From positions 1 to 64,000 of the forward strand of contig NZ_JAECRZ010000012.1 of NCBI RefSeq assembly GCF_016019955.1: DNA of 64,000 nucleotides, given 5' to 3'. The notes beneath the pieces are model-generated. The model was given only the letters and a program-made list of their open reading frames with translations. It was not told the DNA's origin and did not search any database. The DNA comes from Thiosulfatihalobacter marinus (GTDB taxonomy: Bacteria; Pseudomonadota; Alphaproteobacteria; Rhodobacterales; Rhodobacteraceae). A program made the translations under genes and the position numbers. Shown here in pieces: positions 22,716 to 39,955 of the stretch (position 1 is its first letter; each line of letters opens with the position of its first letter).

Positions 22716-23174
22716 CTAGCTCACTGTTTGATTTTCCGAACCCACTTCCGCGAGCAAAATCTGCCGAATTGAGCTTTCAATTTTGACTTTTCCAAATGTT
22801 GAAGCATCTCGGAAAACTGACTTCGTTTCGCATTCGAAGCAAATCAAGTCATGCTGACGGCCGACAACTTTTAGACCAACTGAACTTTCCCCGACATGGA
22901 CCACATAGACCTCGCATGCTAGGTTCGCGCCTGCTTTCACCGGCGCATGGAATTGTAGGTCCATAGAGACAAAAGGCATGGCCGTGTTTCTTTCCGTGAG
23001 TAGAAAAAGCCAGCCCCGGCCTGAAAGCAAATCGTCCCAGAAAGTCTCGATCGCTTCCAGCGCGAAATTCGTGATCCGGCCAGTAAAGGCGATTCCCAGC
23101 TGGTCACAGTCGCCAAAGAAAATCCTGCGTTCGAAGGCAAATCGTGGTTTAAATTCTGTTTCTGGTACATTCAT
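22716..23174 (-). CDS. Hotdog-fold acyl-CoA thioesterase (4-hydroxybenzoyl-CoA thioesterase-like)
   Basis: A 152-residue protein with the thioesterase pattern: FGDCDQLGIAFTGRITNFALEAIETFW at residues about 20-46 (the Asp and the YT/FT positions of the active-site loop) and FHAPVKAGANLACEVYVVHVGESSVGLKVVGR later on. It hydrolyses an acyl-CoA, so in this catabolic island it may release stalled CoA intermediates. It is transcribed in the same direction as the AraC gene, with a 73-bp gap. The IS3-family element ends 139 bp downstream. Confidence 0.8.
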   Translation of the reverse strand: MNVPETEFKPRFAFERRIFFGDCDQLGIAFTGRITNFALEAIETFWDDLLSGRGWLFLLTERNTAMPFVSMDLQFHAPVKAGANLACEVYVVHVGESSVGLKVVGRQHDLICFECETKSVFRDASTFGKVKIESSIRQILLAEVGSENQTVS

Positions 23175-23247
23175 TGCAGCGTTACGGGCTCAACATTTCT
23201 TTGTCTCTGGTGCGTGACAGCGATAGGAAGGAATAGTTTTCCGGTAA

Positions 23248-24129
23248 TTATGCCATGCGCCGGAATTCGGCGGGGGTCGCGCCTGTCATTTTTCGAAAAG
23301 TTCGACTAAAATGACTCTGATCTGCAAAACCGCAGTCAAGCGCGACCACTTTCAGGGGGGCATTACCCTTTCTCAGCATCTCCTGGGCCTTCGATATTCG
23401 CTTGCGCAAAACATATGCATACGGTGCCAACCCAAACTCCGCCTTGAACTGACGCGAAAAGTGAAACTGGCTGAAACCGATAGATGCGGCCATGTCTTCC
23501 AGACTGAGGTTTTCACCTAAGCAGCTTTCAACGAGATCGATGATTCTCTGCCTTTGAGCAGGGCTGAAGTTCGAGTTTGCGTCGCTGGTCAAAGAGACCT
23601 TGGCGTACTGACGCAGAAGGTGAACGGCGATCTGGATGCGCAGGGCGTCGATGATCAATCTCTGGCCGATTCCACCGTTCTTTAGCTCATTCTCTAGCAA
23701 TTGGATGCAGTTCAGGATACAGGGGTCCTTCGCAGACAGACAATCATTGATCTCAATGGACTTCGGGTCACGATCAAAGACCGAAAGGGCCGTGTTTTCG
23801 AGTTCACTGTGACTGAGATAGACGTGTCTAACCGTGATAGGCTCGGACCAACTCCAAGTGGATTCCTCTGCACGCGTGAGCAAGGAAATCCTACCTTTCT
23901 CTACGCGCGCGCTTTGCCATGGGCCGCCACTCGTGCGGCGCATAGTGGTTGGCGCGCCATCATATGCAACAATCATATAGTCGCGCATGGGGGGAATTGC
24001 CGCGTCTTGTCGCTCATAACGATAGCCCTTCAGGGTAATGCCGTTCCAGTTGCACCCGGAACTGTCCAACGTAGTCGTGCCGGGAATCCATTCGGGTATC
24101 CGGTCCGGTGATATGAGCAGTCTTTCCAT
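23248..24129 (-). CDS. AraC-family transcriptional regulator
   Basis: A 293-residue regulator from the ATG at 24129. The N-terminal about 180 residues are an effector or dimerisation domain without a clear family. The C-terminal 100 residues hold two HTHs: LSLEDMAASIGFSQFHFSRQFKAEFGLAPYAYVLRKRISKAQEML and LKVVALDCGFADQSHFSRTFRKMTGATPAEFRR, the classical AraC signature. In Acinetobacter the cyclohexanone pathway is controlled by the AraC-type activator ChnR, so this is the likely pathway activator, responding to a cyclic ketone or related inducer. That link is by analogy and gene context only. Confidence 0.9.
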   Translation of the reverse strand: MERLLISPDRIPEWIPGTTTLDSSGCNWNGITLKGYRYERQDAAIPPMRDYMIVAYDGAPTTMRRTSGGPWQSARVEKGRISLLTRAEESTWSWSEPITVRHVYLSHSELENTALSVFDRDPKSIEINDCLSAKDPCILNCIQLLENELKNGGIGQRLIIDALRIQIAVHLLRQYAKVSLTSDANSNFSPAQRQRIIDLVESCLGENLSLEDMAASIGFSQFHFSRQFKAEFGLAPYAYVLRKRISKAQEMLRKGNAPLKVVALDCGFADQSHFSRTFRKMTGATPAEFRRMA

Positions 24130-37833: not shown

Positions 37834-38759
37834 TGGCTGTTCTTCTCCTTGCAGAAATCGCCGGTGGCGCGCTGGCGCTGGACGCCACCGCCAAGGCGGT
37901 GACCGCTGCCAAATCGCTGGGCGATGTGACCGTTCTGGTTGCGGGCCCTGCTGCTGCGGGTCAGGCCGCGTCGCAGATCGACGGCGTGGCGAAGGTTGTG
38001 GTCGCGGATGACGCGGCCTACGCCAACGGCCTGGCCGAGCCGGTCGCCGATCTGGTGGTCAGCCTGGCAGGCAATTATGAACATATCGTTGCTCCCTCCA
38101 CGGCAAGCGCGAAAAACATCCTGCCGCGCGTTGCGGCGCTGCTGGATGTGATGGTTCTGTCGGACGTGACGGCCATCCTGGACGGGTCCACGTTCGAGCG
38201 CCCGATCTACGCGGGCAACGCGATGCAGACGGTAAAGTCCAACGATTCCAAGAAGTTACTGACCGTCCGCACCACCGCCTTCGACGCGGCTGGCCAGGGT
38301 GGCTCGGCCGCCGTCGAGGCCATCGCAGCAGCCGGCAACGCGGGCCTGAGCGCCTGGGTCGAGGACAAGGTCGCGGCGTCGGATCGTCCGGAACTGACCT
38401 CGGCCAAGGTCGTGGTCTCGGGCGGGCGCGGCGTCGGTTCCGAGGAAAATTTCGCGATTATTGAAGCACTTGCGGACAAACTGGGTGCTGCCGTCGGCGC
38501 CTCGCGCGCGGCTGTGGACTCTGGGTTCGCACCGAACGACTGGCAGGTCGGCCAGACCGGCAAGGTCGTGGCGCCCGAGCTGTATATCGCGGTCGGGATT
38601 TCCGGGGCAATTCAACACCTTGCGGGGATGAAGGACAGTAAGGTCATCGTCGCCATCAACAAGGACGAAGAGGCCCCCATCTTCCAAATCGCCGATTACG
38701 GCCTCGTCGCAGACCTCTTCGACGCAGTCCCGGACCTGACAAAGGCACTCAAAGAATGA
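37833..38759 (+). CDS. etfA: Electron transfer flavoprotein subunit alpha
   Basis: A 308-residue ETF alpha subunit. N-terminal AVLLLAEIAGGALALDATAKAV, middle LPRVAALLDVMVLSDVT, and the C-terminal FAD-binding domain with VVSGGRGVGSEENF, AAVDSGFAPNDWQVGQTGKVVAPELYIAVGISGAIQHLAGM and INKDEEAPIFQIADYGLV. It binds FAD and pairs with EtfB to accept electrons from the island's acyl-CoA dehydrogenase. It overlaps the thiolase start by four bases. Codon use is GC-rich as in the body of etfB. Confidence 0.95.
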   Translation: MAVLLLAEIAGGALALDATAKAVTAAKSLGDVTVLVAGPAAAGQAASQIDGVAKVVVADDAAYANGLAEPVADLVVSLAGNYEHIVAPSTASAKNILPRVAALLDVMVLSDVTAILDGSTFERPIYAGNAMQTVKSNDSKKLLTVRTTAFDAAGQGGSAAVEAIAAAGNAGLSAWVEDKVAASDRPELTSAKVVVSGGRGVGSEENFAIIEALADKLGAAVGASRAAVDSGFAPNDWQVGQTGKVVAPELYIAVGISGAIQHLAGMKDSKVIVAINKDEEAPIFQIADYGLVADLFDAVPDLTKALKE

Positions 38760-39955
38760 CAAACGTCTATATCTGCGATTACATCCGCACACCAATCGGT
38801 CGCTATGGCGGCGCGCTTTCTTCTGTGCGAGCCGACGATCTTGGCGCAATCCCACTCAGGGCCTTGGCCAGCCGAAACCCGGGGCTAGATCTAGCGACCA
38901 TTGACGAAGTGATTTTTGGCTGCGCCAACCAAGCGGGAGAGGACAACCGTAATGTTGCTCGCATGTCGCTTCTACTAGCTGGATTTCCGGATTGTGTACC
39001 GGGGACAACAATGAATCGGTTGTGCGGGTCGGGCATGGATGCGATAATCACGGCCGCCCGCGCTATCAAATCAGGAGAGGCCGATCTCATTGTCGCAGGT
39101 GGTGTGGAAAGCATGTCGCGTGCTCCGTTTGTGATGCCAAAAGCTACAACAGTATTCTCGCGCGAGAATAGTGTGGAAGACACCACCATCGGCTGGCGCT
39201 TCGTCAATAGACTGATGAAGAGCCAATACGGCGTCGACAGTATGCCTGAAACGGCCGAAAACGTGGCTGAAGTCTTCGGCATCAACCGCGCCGACCAAGA
39301 TGCTTTCGCCCTACATTCCCAGCAAAAGGCGAGCGTTGCTATGGCGAACGGTCGTTTGGCCCGTGAAATTGTCCCGGTAGAGATTCCTCAGCGAAAGGGG
39401 GAGCCAAAGATCGTCGTACAGGATGAACACCCTCGCGCGAGTACGACTTTGGAAGCGCTCGCCCAACTGAAAACTTTCGTAAAAGCGGATGGCACGGTAA
39501 CCGCAGGGAATTCTTCAGGCGTGAACGATGGTGCCGCAGCATTGATCCTTGCCACCAGCGACGTCGCAAAAAAATTTGGCCTCACGCCGGTCGCAAGGGT
39601 CTTGGGCGGCGCAACCGCCGGCGTTGCACCGCGCATCATGGGTTTCGGGCCGGCACCGGCGTCGAAAAAGCTGATGGCGCGACTTGGACTGAAACAAGAA
39701 GACTTCTCGGTGATCGAACTTAACGAAGCCTTTGCTTCGCAGGGTCTGGCCACACTACGGCACCTGGGGATCGCGGATGATGATGCCCGCGTGAACCCAA
39801 ACGGCGGCGCTATTGCTCTCGGCCATCCGCTTGGCATGTCGGGTGCCCGCATCACCGGCTCAGCGATGCTGGACCTCAAACCTGGAGAAAAGTCGTTGTC
39901 GACCATGTGTATTGGCGTGGGACAGGGAATTGCAATCGCACTCGAAGCTGTCTGA
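38756..39955 (+). CDS. Acetyl-CoA acyltransferase (3-oxoadipyl-CoA thiolase-like)
   Basis: A 399-residue thiolase. Nucleophile Cys90 in NRLCGSGMDAI, His near 357 in GGAIALGHPLGMSGAR and the second Cys near 385 in CIGVGQG. The start RTPIGRYGGALSSVRADDL and the length resemble PcaF/PaaJ-type beta-ketoadipyl-CoA thiolases, which fits a C6 dicarboxylate pathway ending in succinyl-CoA and acetyl-CoA. It is the last gene of the catabolic plus arm. Confidence 0.92.
   Translation: MTNVYICDYIRTPIGRYGGALSSVRADDLGAIPLRALASRNPGLDLATIDEVIFGCANQAGEDNRNVARMSLLLAGFPDCVPGTTMNRLCGSGMDAIITAARAIKSGEADLIVAGGVESMSRAPFVMPKATTVFSRENSVEDTTIGWRFVNRLMKSQYGVDSMPETAENVAEVFGINRADQDAFALHSQQKASVAMANGRLAREIVPVEIPQRKGEPKIVVQDEHPRASTTLEALAQLKTFVKADGTVTAGNSSGVNDGAAALILATSDVAKKFGLTPVARVLGGATAGVAPRIMGFGPAPASKKLMARLGLKQEDFSVIELNEAFASQGLATLRHLGIADDDARVNPNGGAIALGHPLGMSGARITGSAMLDLKPGEKSLSTMCIGVGQGIAIALEAV

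What the first reader, a model, noticed from the sequence alone, without database searches (positions are those of the whole stretch)
22716..39955. Apparently complete plasmid-borne route from a cyclic alcohol or ketone to central metabolism
The sequence holds, in one island, an SDR, a Baeyer-Villiger monooxygenase with the FxGxxxHxxxWP fingerprint, an HSL-type hydrolase, an alcohol dehydrogenase, an aldehyde dehydrogenase, a CoA transferase, an acyl-CoA dehydrogenase, ETF, a hydratase/dehydrogenase and a thiolase, with AraC and IclR regulators. From the known Acinetobacter chn pathway the first five match cyclohexanol to adipate, and the rest match adipate beta-oxidation. What differs is the iron-type rather than zinc-type omega-hydroxyacid dehydrogenase, the CoA transferase entry, and the linkage of ring opening to complete beta-oxidation with its own ETF. 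Substrate is inferred.
Basis: partly seen in the sequence, partly recalled or inferred. Interest (0 to 1): 0.8.

Follow-up and report, generated by a model that had tools for sequence, protein, structure and literature searches.

The report
Mobile marine cyclohexanol-degradation gene cassette
A ready-made set of genes that most likely lets sea bacteria eat the solvents cyclohexanol and cyclohexanone, all the way to central metabolism, sits as one block on plasmids shared among several marine genera; the chemistry is of a known type, the assembly and its mobility are the new part.

Summary
All genes claimed are present and intact, as a divergent cassette (22,716-39,955) on a RepABC-type plasmid with transfer genes. 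The monooxygenase is of the cyclohexanone class; the thiolase passes the 3-oxoadipyl-CoA (PcaF) cut-off. Best reading: cyclohexanol -> cyclohexanone -> caprolactone -> 6-hydroxyhexanoate -> adipate -> succinyl-CoA + acetyl-CoA. Every substrate is inferred.

Added here: (1) 11 plasmid records hold at least 80% of the stretch, up to 100.0% identical over 19 kb; 15 species records from 12 genera hold a close copy. (2) It occupies a cargo slot of a plasmid backbone: six sister plasmids carry other modules there, and against S. faviae OXR-9 it is more alike (mostly 92-100%) than its flanks (84-91%), so it moves as a unit. (3) An iron-type alcohol dehydrogenase stands in for the zinc-type one of other clusters (both in 0 of 58 loci). 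(4) A 22-bp-period direct repeat before the hydrolase-monooxygenase operon fits an AraC/XylS operator.

Not unique: CoA-transferase entry and linkage to beta-oxidation. Verdict: new variant of a known kind.

The parts
22716..23174 (-). 4HBT-type acyl-CoA thioesterase; accessory
   Evidence: Pfam PF03061; present on the roseobacter plasmids read, not beside the Labrenzia copy
23248..24129 (-). AraC/XylS-family regulator, proposed ChnR-like activator
   Evidence: PF12833; start from homologue annotation; operator evidence
24182..25384 (-). family III CoA transferase, proposed succinyl-CoA:adipate CoA-transferase
   Evidence: PF02515; best NCBIfam model succinate-glutarate CoA-transferase, 361 bits, below its 750 cut-off; Asp169 present (its catalytic role is recalled)
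25384..26538 (-). iron-type alcohol dehydrogenase, proposed 6-hydroxyhexanoate dehydrogenase
   Evidence: PF00465/PF25137; D192, H196, H262, H276 invariant in 4 of 4 aligned (metal role recalled)
26557..27717 (-). acyl-CoA dehydrogenase, proposed adipyl-CoA dehydrogenase
   Evidence: PF02771/02770/00441; YEGT motif
27733..28527 (-). IclR-family regulator
   Evidence: PF09339/PF01614
28528..28698 (.). divergent control region with conserved core and inverted repeat TCCCGCTATGCGGAA at 28611-28625, proposed IclR operator
   Evidence: core GTCAATA-N-TGCGG in 8 of 8 aligned homologues; TTCCGC-N3-GCGGAA exact in 5 of 8, one mismatch in 3 of 8 incl. the window; the palindrome alone is not rarer than chance in the window
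28699..30153 (+). SSADH-type aldehyde dehydrogenase, proposed 6-oxohexanoate dehydrogenase (ChnE role)
   Evidence: PF00171; TIGR01780 461 bits, below its 646 cut-off; 5vbf
30162..32243 (+). FadJ-like enoyl-CoA hydratase/3-hydroxyacyl-CoA dehydrogenase
   Evidence: PF00378, PF02737, PF00725
32263..33311 (.). IS5 (ISPko1-like) remnant between FadJ and hydrolase; ends approximate
   Evidence: about 80-86% DNA match to ISPko1/IS5-type elements
33346..33382 (+). tandem direct repeat GCARG-N6-CAAT, 22-bp period, proposed AraC (ChnR-like) operator
   Evidence: exact match, the only one in the window; conserved upstream of the hydrolase
33505..34407 (+). HSL-family alpha/beta hydrolase, proposed caprolactone hydrolase (ChnC role)
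   Evidence: PF07859; HGGG and GDSAG motifs
34533..36170 (+). type I Baeyer-Villiger monooxygenase, cyclohexanone-monooxygenase class (ChnB role)
36243..36998 (+). short-chain dehydrogenase, proposed cyclohexanol dehydrogenase (ChnA role)
37075..37833 (+). electron transfer flavoprotein subunit beta
   Evidence: homologue annotation; three more copies at 85-87% identity in the own genome
37833..38759 (+). electron transfer flavoprotein subunit alpha
   Evidence: homologue annotation ('FAD-binding protein' after EtfB; gene name etfA_2)
38756..39955 (+). 3-oxoadipyl-CoA thiolase (PcaF class)
   Evidence: TIGR02430 671.5 bits vs cut-off 597
21324..22578 (-). IS3-family insertion next to the cassette; absent in S. 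faviae OXR-9
   Evidence: ends read by eye
21305..40000 (.). cargo slot: conserved backbone on both sides, cassette plus IS3 between; the right edge differs between sister plasmids

Best explanation
A self-contained, mobile cassette for growth on cyclohexanol/cyclohexanone. SDR oxidises cyclohexanol to cyclohexanone; the CHMO-type BVMO inserts oxygen to give epsilon-caprolactone; the HSL-type hydrolase opens it to 6-hydroxyhexanoate; the iron-type ADH and the SSADH-type ALDH oxidise that to adipate. A family III CoA transferase moves CoA from succinyl-CoA to adipate; acyl-CoA dehydrogenase with its own ETF, the FadJ-like enzyme and the PcaF-type thiolase convert adipyl-CoA to acetyl-CoA + succinyl-CoA, which refills the CoA donor. 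An AraC (ChnR-like) activator binds tandem repeats upstream of the hydrolase-BVMO operon; IclR controls the divergent promoter of the other arms. Shown: gene content, order, intactness, sequence-level selection, enzyme classes, mobility pattern, conserved repeats. Inferred: each substrate, cofactor and regulator-operator pairing.
For: The seven best PDB sequences for the BVMO are cyclohexanone monooxygenases (742.5-725.8 bits); then ten entries named putative flavin-binding monooxygenase (700-657), one putative monooxygenase (563), steroid (500), phenylacetone (473 at best) and OTEMO (412) enzymes. The alignment with Rhodococcus CHMO has no gap over residues 12-535; 11 of 11 pocket positions (list and letters recalled) fit. 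Thiolase passes the PcaF cut-off. CoA transferase is nearest to the succinate-glutarate model, ALDH to SSADH. Same 13-gene order in Labrenzia. Against S. faviae OXR-9, dN/dS is 0.06-0.30 for 12 of 14 genes, 0.44 for AraC (5 changes in all), zero for the thioesterase (2 changes); no internal stop in 14 of 14. Iron- and zinc-type ADH together in 0 of 58 loci. AraC-type tandem repeat 159 bp before the hydrolase; ChnR is an AraC/XylS-family, cyclohexanone-responsive activator (PMC4225500, passages).
Against: No enzyme assay or growth record was found. CoA transferase, Fe-ADH, ALDH, acyl-CoA dehydrogenase and FadJ-like protein stay below the curated cut-off of every model shown for them, so sequence does not fix their substrates. 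FadJ is the least conserved enzyme (66% to Labrenzia; dN/dS 0.30 to OXR-9). An IS5 remnant separates FadJ from the hydrolase. The cassette annotation shows no transporter and no ring hydroxylase. The own genome has another PcaF-like thiolase (64%) and three more ETF-beta genes, so the extra copies are not strictly needed. The repeat with up to three mismatches also turns up in 22 of 100 shuffles of the window.
Confidence: 0.8

Rival explanations
1. The cassette degrades a substituted cyclic ketone (for example a methylcyclohexanone or monoterpenoid ketone) instead of plain cyclohexanone.
For: CHMO relatives sit beside different downstream genes elsewhere: HMG-CoA lyase, carboxylase-type and citryl-CoA lyase genes on pSMR1-4, CoA ester lyase and MaoC on Actibacterium pNS6002. 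CHMOs are known to be broad (recalled).
Against: None of those branched-chain genes is in the window's cassette; it has a PcaF-class thiolase, which fits an unbranched C6 dicarboxylate.
Confidence: 0.09
2. Cyclopentanol/cyclopentanone route (cpn type) ending in glutarate, or another ring size such as cycloheptanone to pimelate.
For: CoA transferase is nearest to the succinate-glutarate model; BVMOs of this class take C5 and C7 ketones (recalled).
Against: A glutaryl-CoA route needs no 3-oxoadipyl-CoA thiolase (recalled); the acyl-CoA dehydrogenase scores 237.5 bits on the glutaryl-CoA dehydrogenase model listed, cut-off 470.
Confidence: 0.05
3. Mainly an adipate/dicarboxylate utilisation cassette to which a ketone arm was added, with the ketone arm secondary.
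For: Left arm and ETF-thiolase genes alone could degrade adipate; two plasmids hold only 69% and 57% of the stretch and carry the Fe-ADH but are not among the 30 best BVMO records shown.
Against: The hydrolase-BVMO core with its upstream repeat is the most widely shared part; Fe-ADH and ALDH are not needed for adipate.
Confidence: 0.04
4. A decaying relic, its operon broken by the IS5 insertion.
For: IS5 remnant between FadJ and hydrolase; truncated copies on other plasmids.
Against: No internal stop in 14 of 14 genes and low dN/dS for most; the 193 bp between the IS remnant and the hydrolase still hold the repeat.
Confidence: 0.02

Closest known systems
Acinetobacter NCIMB 9871 / SE19 chn pathway (cyclohexanol to adipate; ChnR/PchnB)
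   Same: Cyclohexanol to adipate by dehydrogenase, BVMO, lactonase, second alcohol dehydrogenase and aldehyde dehydrogenase; AraC/XylS activator that answers to cyclohexanone (PMC4225500, PMC4738008, PMC7542165: passages only).
Rhodococcus sp. YL-1 pYLL2 BVMO cluster
   Same: Hydrolase-BVMO-ALDH-SDR with CoA transferase, acyl-CoA dehydrogenase, MaoC hydratase, FabG and thiolase nearby, on a plasmid.
   Different: Zinc-type ADH, MaoC + FabG instead of a FadJ-like fusion, LysR and another HTH regulator, no ETF annotated in the stretch read; BVMO 58% identical.
Alphaproteobacterial hydrolase-BVMO-SDR clusters (Actibacterium, Stakelama, Sphingomonas Ant H11)
   Same: Same core and upstream tandem repeat; IclR and acyl-CoA dehydrogenase at 72-84%.
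   Different: Zinc-type ADH; no FadJ-like, ETF or PcaF match in the stretches held.
Pseudomonas jessenii caprolactam/adipate genes
   Same: Proposed CoA transferase, adipyl-CoA dehydrogenase, hydroxyadipyl-CoA dehydrogenase and thiolase for adipate (PMC6061476, passages).
   Different: Entry from caprolactam through an aminotransferase; two separate clusters.
RepL-type marine plasmid with interchangeable cassettes (Petersen et al., PNAS 2019; recalled, paper not held)
   Same: Near-identical plasmids across distant roseobacters with swappable cargo (recalled from the abstract).
   Different: Here the window's replicon is RepABC-type, and the cargo read is mostly catabolic gene sets.

Membership tests
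chn-type cyclohexanol catabolic pathway | type I BVMO of the CHMO class | tested here: met
   Seven best PDB sequences are CHMOs; fingerprint and 11 of 11 recalled pocket positions
chn-type cyclohexanol catabolic pathway | adjacent lactone hydrolase of the HSL family | tested here: met
   PF07859, catalytic motifs, directly upstream of BVMO; activity not tested
chn-type cyclohexanol catabolic pathway | SDR-type secondary alcohol dehydrogenase next to the BVMO | tested here: met
   substrate not tested
chn-type cyclohexanol catabolic pathway | zinc-type omega-hydroxyacid dehydrogenase (ChnD) | tested here: not met
   Fe-ADH instead; none of three zinc-type ADH queries matched any of the 25 Fe-ADH loci. 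Affects the sub-type, not the pathway logic
chn-type cyclohexanol catabolic pathway | SSADH-like aldehyde dehydrogenase (ChnE role) | tested here: met
   TIGR01780 match, below cut-off; 5vbf
chn-type cyclohexanol catabolic pathway | AraC/XylS activator (ChnR) acting on the BVMO promoter | tested here: inconclusive
   AraC protein present and conserved tandem repeat upstream; binding not testable, ChnR sequence not compared
chn-type cyclohexanol catabolic pathway | growth on and induction by cyclohexanol/cyclohexanone | not testable with these tools
   needs the strain
adipate beta-oxidation (dca/paa-like) | 3-oxoadipyl-CoA thiolase | tested here: met
   TIGR02430 671.5 bits over cut-off 597
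adipate beta-oxidation (dca/paa-like) | CoA activation of adipate | tested here: inconclusive
   family III CoA transferase, succinate-glutarate model below cut-off
cpn-type cyclopentanol pathway | C5 ring specificity and glutarate end product | tested here: inconclusive
   genes point to a C6 dicarboxylate; BVMO ring-size preference was not read from sequence
RepABC plasmid | RepC replicase with RepA/RepB partition genes | tested here: met
   RP-C above cut-off, ParB_N above and RepB below cut-off, AAA_31 at 5,329-8,860

The most novel reading that the evidence does not exclude
A plasmid backbone of marine Rhodobacterales with transfer genes has one cargo slot, between the ParB-like gene and the transfer operon, into which complete catabolic pathways, several with their own ETF, are swapped as single blocks by recombination in the conserved flanks. 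The cyclohexanol cassette is one such plug-in, moved among genera in distant places recently enough to stay up to 100% identical.
Probability: 0.6. Interest if true: 0.62.

Novelty: new variant of a known kind. Interest (0 to 1): 0.5.

Why it matters
Cyclohexanol and cyclohexanone are bulk solvents and nylon precursors (general knowledge). A complete pathway that moves as one block between marine genera means that this capacity can spread by plasmid transfer. The iron-type dehydrogenase, the PcaF/ETF set and the conserved tandem repeat give enzymes and a possible cyclohexanone-responsive promoter for laboratory use. The shared slot makes the question of how whole pathways are exchanged between plasmids directly testable.

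Tried and rejected
Rfam gave no match in the window. The IclR-type palindrome is not rarer than chance in the window at two mismatches (8 found, 6.66 expected), so its support is conservation only. A common DNA motif at the two slot edges was looked for by eye and not seen. The idea that linkage of ring opening to beta-oxidation is unique was dropped; that CoA-transferase entry is unique. The ALDH catalytic-Cys pattern was written too narrowly and found nothing; the NAGQVC motif is visible. The PNAS 2019 paper on RepL plasmids is not held. Dropped rows: one search kept 59 upstream regions where hydrolase and BVMO are adjacent on the + strand of the locus; L085 (other strand) and L100 (two pairs) are not among them, and L001 is the window itself; the repeat pattern was made from these same sequences, so the shuffle comparison leans towards it. 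One search left out 15 loci beforehand (window copies, near-identical plasmid stretches, plasmids without the cassette) and then non-adjacent pairs, leaving 58. The table used 16 operator sequences; at least the L022 and L032 variants were left out.

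
Full report
What is there. The window lies on contig C3 of a 4.16-Mb draft genome. Frames, Pfam, NCBIfam and homologue annotation give this order. Leftward: IclR, acyl-CoA dehydrogenase, Fe-ADH, CoA transferase III, AraC, 4HBT thioesterase. Rightward from the same 171-bp region (28,528-28,698): SSADH-type ALDH and a FadJ-like enzyme, then an IS5 remnant, then HSL hydrolase, BVMO, SDR, EtfB, EtfA and PcaF-type thiolase. Several of the mechanical frame starts are too early; the parts list uses the annotated starts of homologues.

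Plasmid. RepC, RepB and ParA-type genes lie at 5,329-8,860 and a TrbI protein at 50,337-51,779. The stretch 22,000-41,000 is 100.0% identical over its whole length to circular pTHAF37_f (83,443 bp) and to a Ruegeria sp. SCSIO 43209 plasmid, and 99.7% to S. pontiacus BL28 p4; 11 of 558 matching plasmid records hold at least 80% of it in one place. Parts of the rest of the window match BL28 p4, pTHAF37_f and S. indolifex NZ_CP084956.1 at 99-100%.

Enzymes. The seven best PDB sequences for the BVMO are cyclohexanone monooxygenases (742.5-725.8 bits), followed by ten named putative flavin-binding monooxygenase (700-657), one putative monooxygenase (563), and steroid (500), phenylacetone (473 at best) and OTEMO (412) enzymes. 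Against Rhodococcus CHMO the alignment has no gap over residues 12-535; the eleven pocket positions that I checked, a list recalled from the RhCHMO literature, read L, L, F, F, R, F, T, N, L, W, F in the window, the letters that I recall. The thiolase passes the 3-oxoadipyl-CoA thiolase cut-off; the CoA transferase, Fe-ADH, ALDH, acyl-CoA dehydrogenase and FadJ-like protein match several models but stay below the cut-off of every model shown. D192, H196, H262 and H276 of the Fe-ADH, its metal ligands by recall, are invariant in 4 of 4 aligned sequences. Motifs of other active sites are in place. The reading cyclohexanol to succinyl-CoA plus acetyl-CoA follows from these classes; each substrate is inference.

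Selection. Against S. faviae OXR-9, dN/dS is between 0.06 and 0.30 for 12 of 14 genes, 0.44 for AraC (5 changes in all) and zero for the thioesterase (2 changes); the Fe-ADH and CoA transferase values also rest on few changes (5 and 8). No gene of 14 has an internal stop in either copy. Against Labrenzia, 13 genes compare at 66-89% protein identity; dN/dS is 0.03-0.24 for the 11 where dS could be computed, but dS is above 1 in 9 of these, so the values are rough.

Who has it. The scan of one genome per species found 183 loci that encode a relative, 80 of them kept; 15 of the 80 have a BVMO at 90% or more identity (L003-L015, L017, L026), from 12 genera by their record titles, and all 15 show the run from Fe-ADH to SDR. 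In 394 evenly drawn genomes of the own family, 3 have a match at E <= 1e-150: the own genome and one more at 100%, one at 51%. So it is rare but scattered. In plasmids, a BVMO at 95% or more occurs in 13 of 458 matching records, and the Fe-ADH at 80% or more in 21 of 206 matching records, with none between 83.3% and 50.3%. Of those 21, 19 also stand in the list with a BVMO at 80% or more; the other two (NZ_CP084956.1, NZ_CP139702.1) hold 69% and 57% of the cassette stretch. So this Fe-ADH is tied to the cassette.

Iron for zinc. In 58 loci with adjacent hydrolase and BVMO, an Fe-ADH relative is found in 25, a zinc-type relative in 18, both in 0, neither in 15; 14 of those 15 are shorter than 9 kb or actinobacterial by title. 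Pfam confirms the zinc type for 5 of 5 ADHs tested from other clusters, and the iron type for the one in Neobacillus citreus, 34% identical and directly behind the BVMO. Apart from Neobacillus the 25 are one lineage, so this is about two independent cases, not 25.

Control. Upstream of the hydrolase the window has one match to GCARG-N6-CAAT-N7-GCARG-N6-CAAT, without mismatch (33,346-33,382). With three mismatches allowed it is still the only one; shuffles then give 0.25 on average, and 22 of 100 shuffles have at least one. In 59 upstream regions, 37 of 37 with BVMO identity of 74% or more carry the repeat at 14 or more of 18 positions, 36 of them at -151 to -167 (one at -318); of the other 22, one reaches 14. 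The set spans roseobacters, Labrenzia, Stakelama/Sphingomonas, a Bradyrhizobium bin, Vineibacter and, with a period of 21, Marinobacter. The pattern was drawn from these sequences, and many of the 37 are near-identical copies or the window itself. XylS binds two direct repeats upstream of -35, and ChnR is an AraC/XylS member answering to cyclohexanone (PMC4225500, passages). In the divergent region a core GTCAATA-N-TGCGG is conserved in 8 of 8 aligned sequences and TTCCGC-N3-GCGGAA is exact in 5 and one base off in 3, but the palindrome alone is not unusual in the window.

Mobility. Identity to S. faviae OXR-9 is 87% left of the cassette, 92-100% inside it except 86-89% around the IS, and 84-91% to the right. 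On the left, backbone similarity stops within 21,297-21,307 in 6 of 6 two-flank plasmids without the cassette, about 85 bp upstream of the annotated ParB-like start. On the right the megablast match begins near 40,000 in 3 of 6, near 40,217 in 2 and near 40,756 in 1, so that edge is less exact. Ten plasmids without the cassette in the stretch read were looked at. Six have both flanks: Roseovarius THAF9 (xanthine dehydrogenase-type and dihydroorotate dehydrogenase genes), Paracoccus albus (acyl-CoA catabolism with an ABC transporter), P. inhibens P24 and Pseudosulfitobacter SMR1 (hydantoinase, folate and ETF genes), P. inhibens P88 (protocatechuate genes), Ruegeria PR1b (acyl-homoserine-lactone synthase). 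Four match at one flank only in the lists and stretches seen (ETF and amine or acid genes; Dnd DNA modification; sugar-acid genes; heat-shock genes). A cargo slot is therefore well supported, its mechanism is not: recombination in the flanks is inference. In several carriers part of the left arm is 99-100% and the right arm 92-96% identical, which also fits recombination inside the cassette. PLSDB typing differs between carriers (rep_cluster_579 in THAF37 and BL28, 392/517 in OXR-9), and a table in PMC9025767 lists CP085161, a carrier, as RepABC-9-2 and CP084956, a partial carrier, as RepABC-4 (passage).

Against known systems. The chemistry is that of the Acinetobacter chn pathway (passages in PMC7542165 and PMC4738008) plus adipate beta-oxidation. 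Differences that held up: iron-type ADH, FadJ-like enzyme, own ETF and PcaF in the same block, IclR plus AraC, cargo on exchangeable plasmids. Differences that did not: CoA transferase entry and linkage to beta-oxidation. Text searches inside PMC9025767, PMC9426580, PMC13386836 and PMC11481893 show no occurrence of cyclohex in the main text; of these I saw passages or only the counts, plus the abstract and section 7 of PMC13386836. Of PMC5513947 I saw the abstract; of PMC9477822 passages. The ten searches named under Tried and rejected listed no description of this cassette; the library lacks most subscription journals and three lists were capped.

Noticed in passing
window about 21305 and 40000: Cargo slot on a roseobacter plasmid backbone; sister plasmids hold other catabolic, defence or quorum-sensing modules there.
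   Followed up: partly
window 37075-38759; L090, L091, L094: Other cargo modules also carry an ETF gene pair, 74-82% identical in DNA to the one in the window.
   Followed up: no
window 21220-21305: About 85 bp upstream of the ParB-like gene, with a GC-rich inverted repeat, looks more conserved across backbones than the start of the gene itself (by eye).
   Followed up: no
L099 (pSMR1-4): A BVMO 69% identical sits beside HMG-CoA lyase and carboxylase-type genes, which suggests a branched or terpenoid ketone substrate there.
   Followed up: no
L060 9040-14408 (Neobacillus citreus): Cluster hydrolase-BVMO-FeADH-ALDH with a sigma-54 activator upstream: a second case of iron-type ADH in this role.
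   Followed up: partly
L029: AraC-CoA transferase-acyl-CoA dehydrogenase-IclR-hydrolase-BVMO without an Fe-ADH match, possibly an intermediate arrangement; the contig is short and holds Ns.
   Followed up: no
NZ_CP084956.1, NZ_CP139702.1: Partial copies (69% and 57% of the stretch) with the Fe-ADH but not among the 30 best BVMO records shown.
   Followed up: no
AP027376.1 (L086): Several cassette genes are annotated as fragments in S. pontiacus BL28 p4 although the DNA is 99.7% identical.
   Followed up: no
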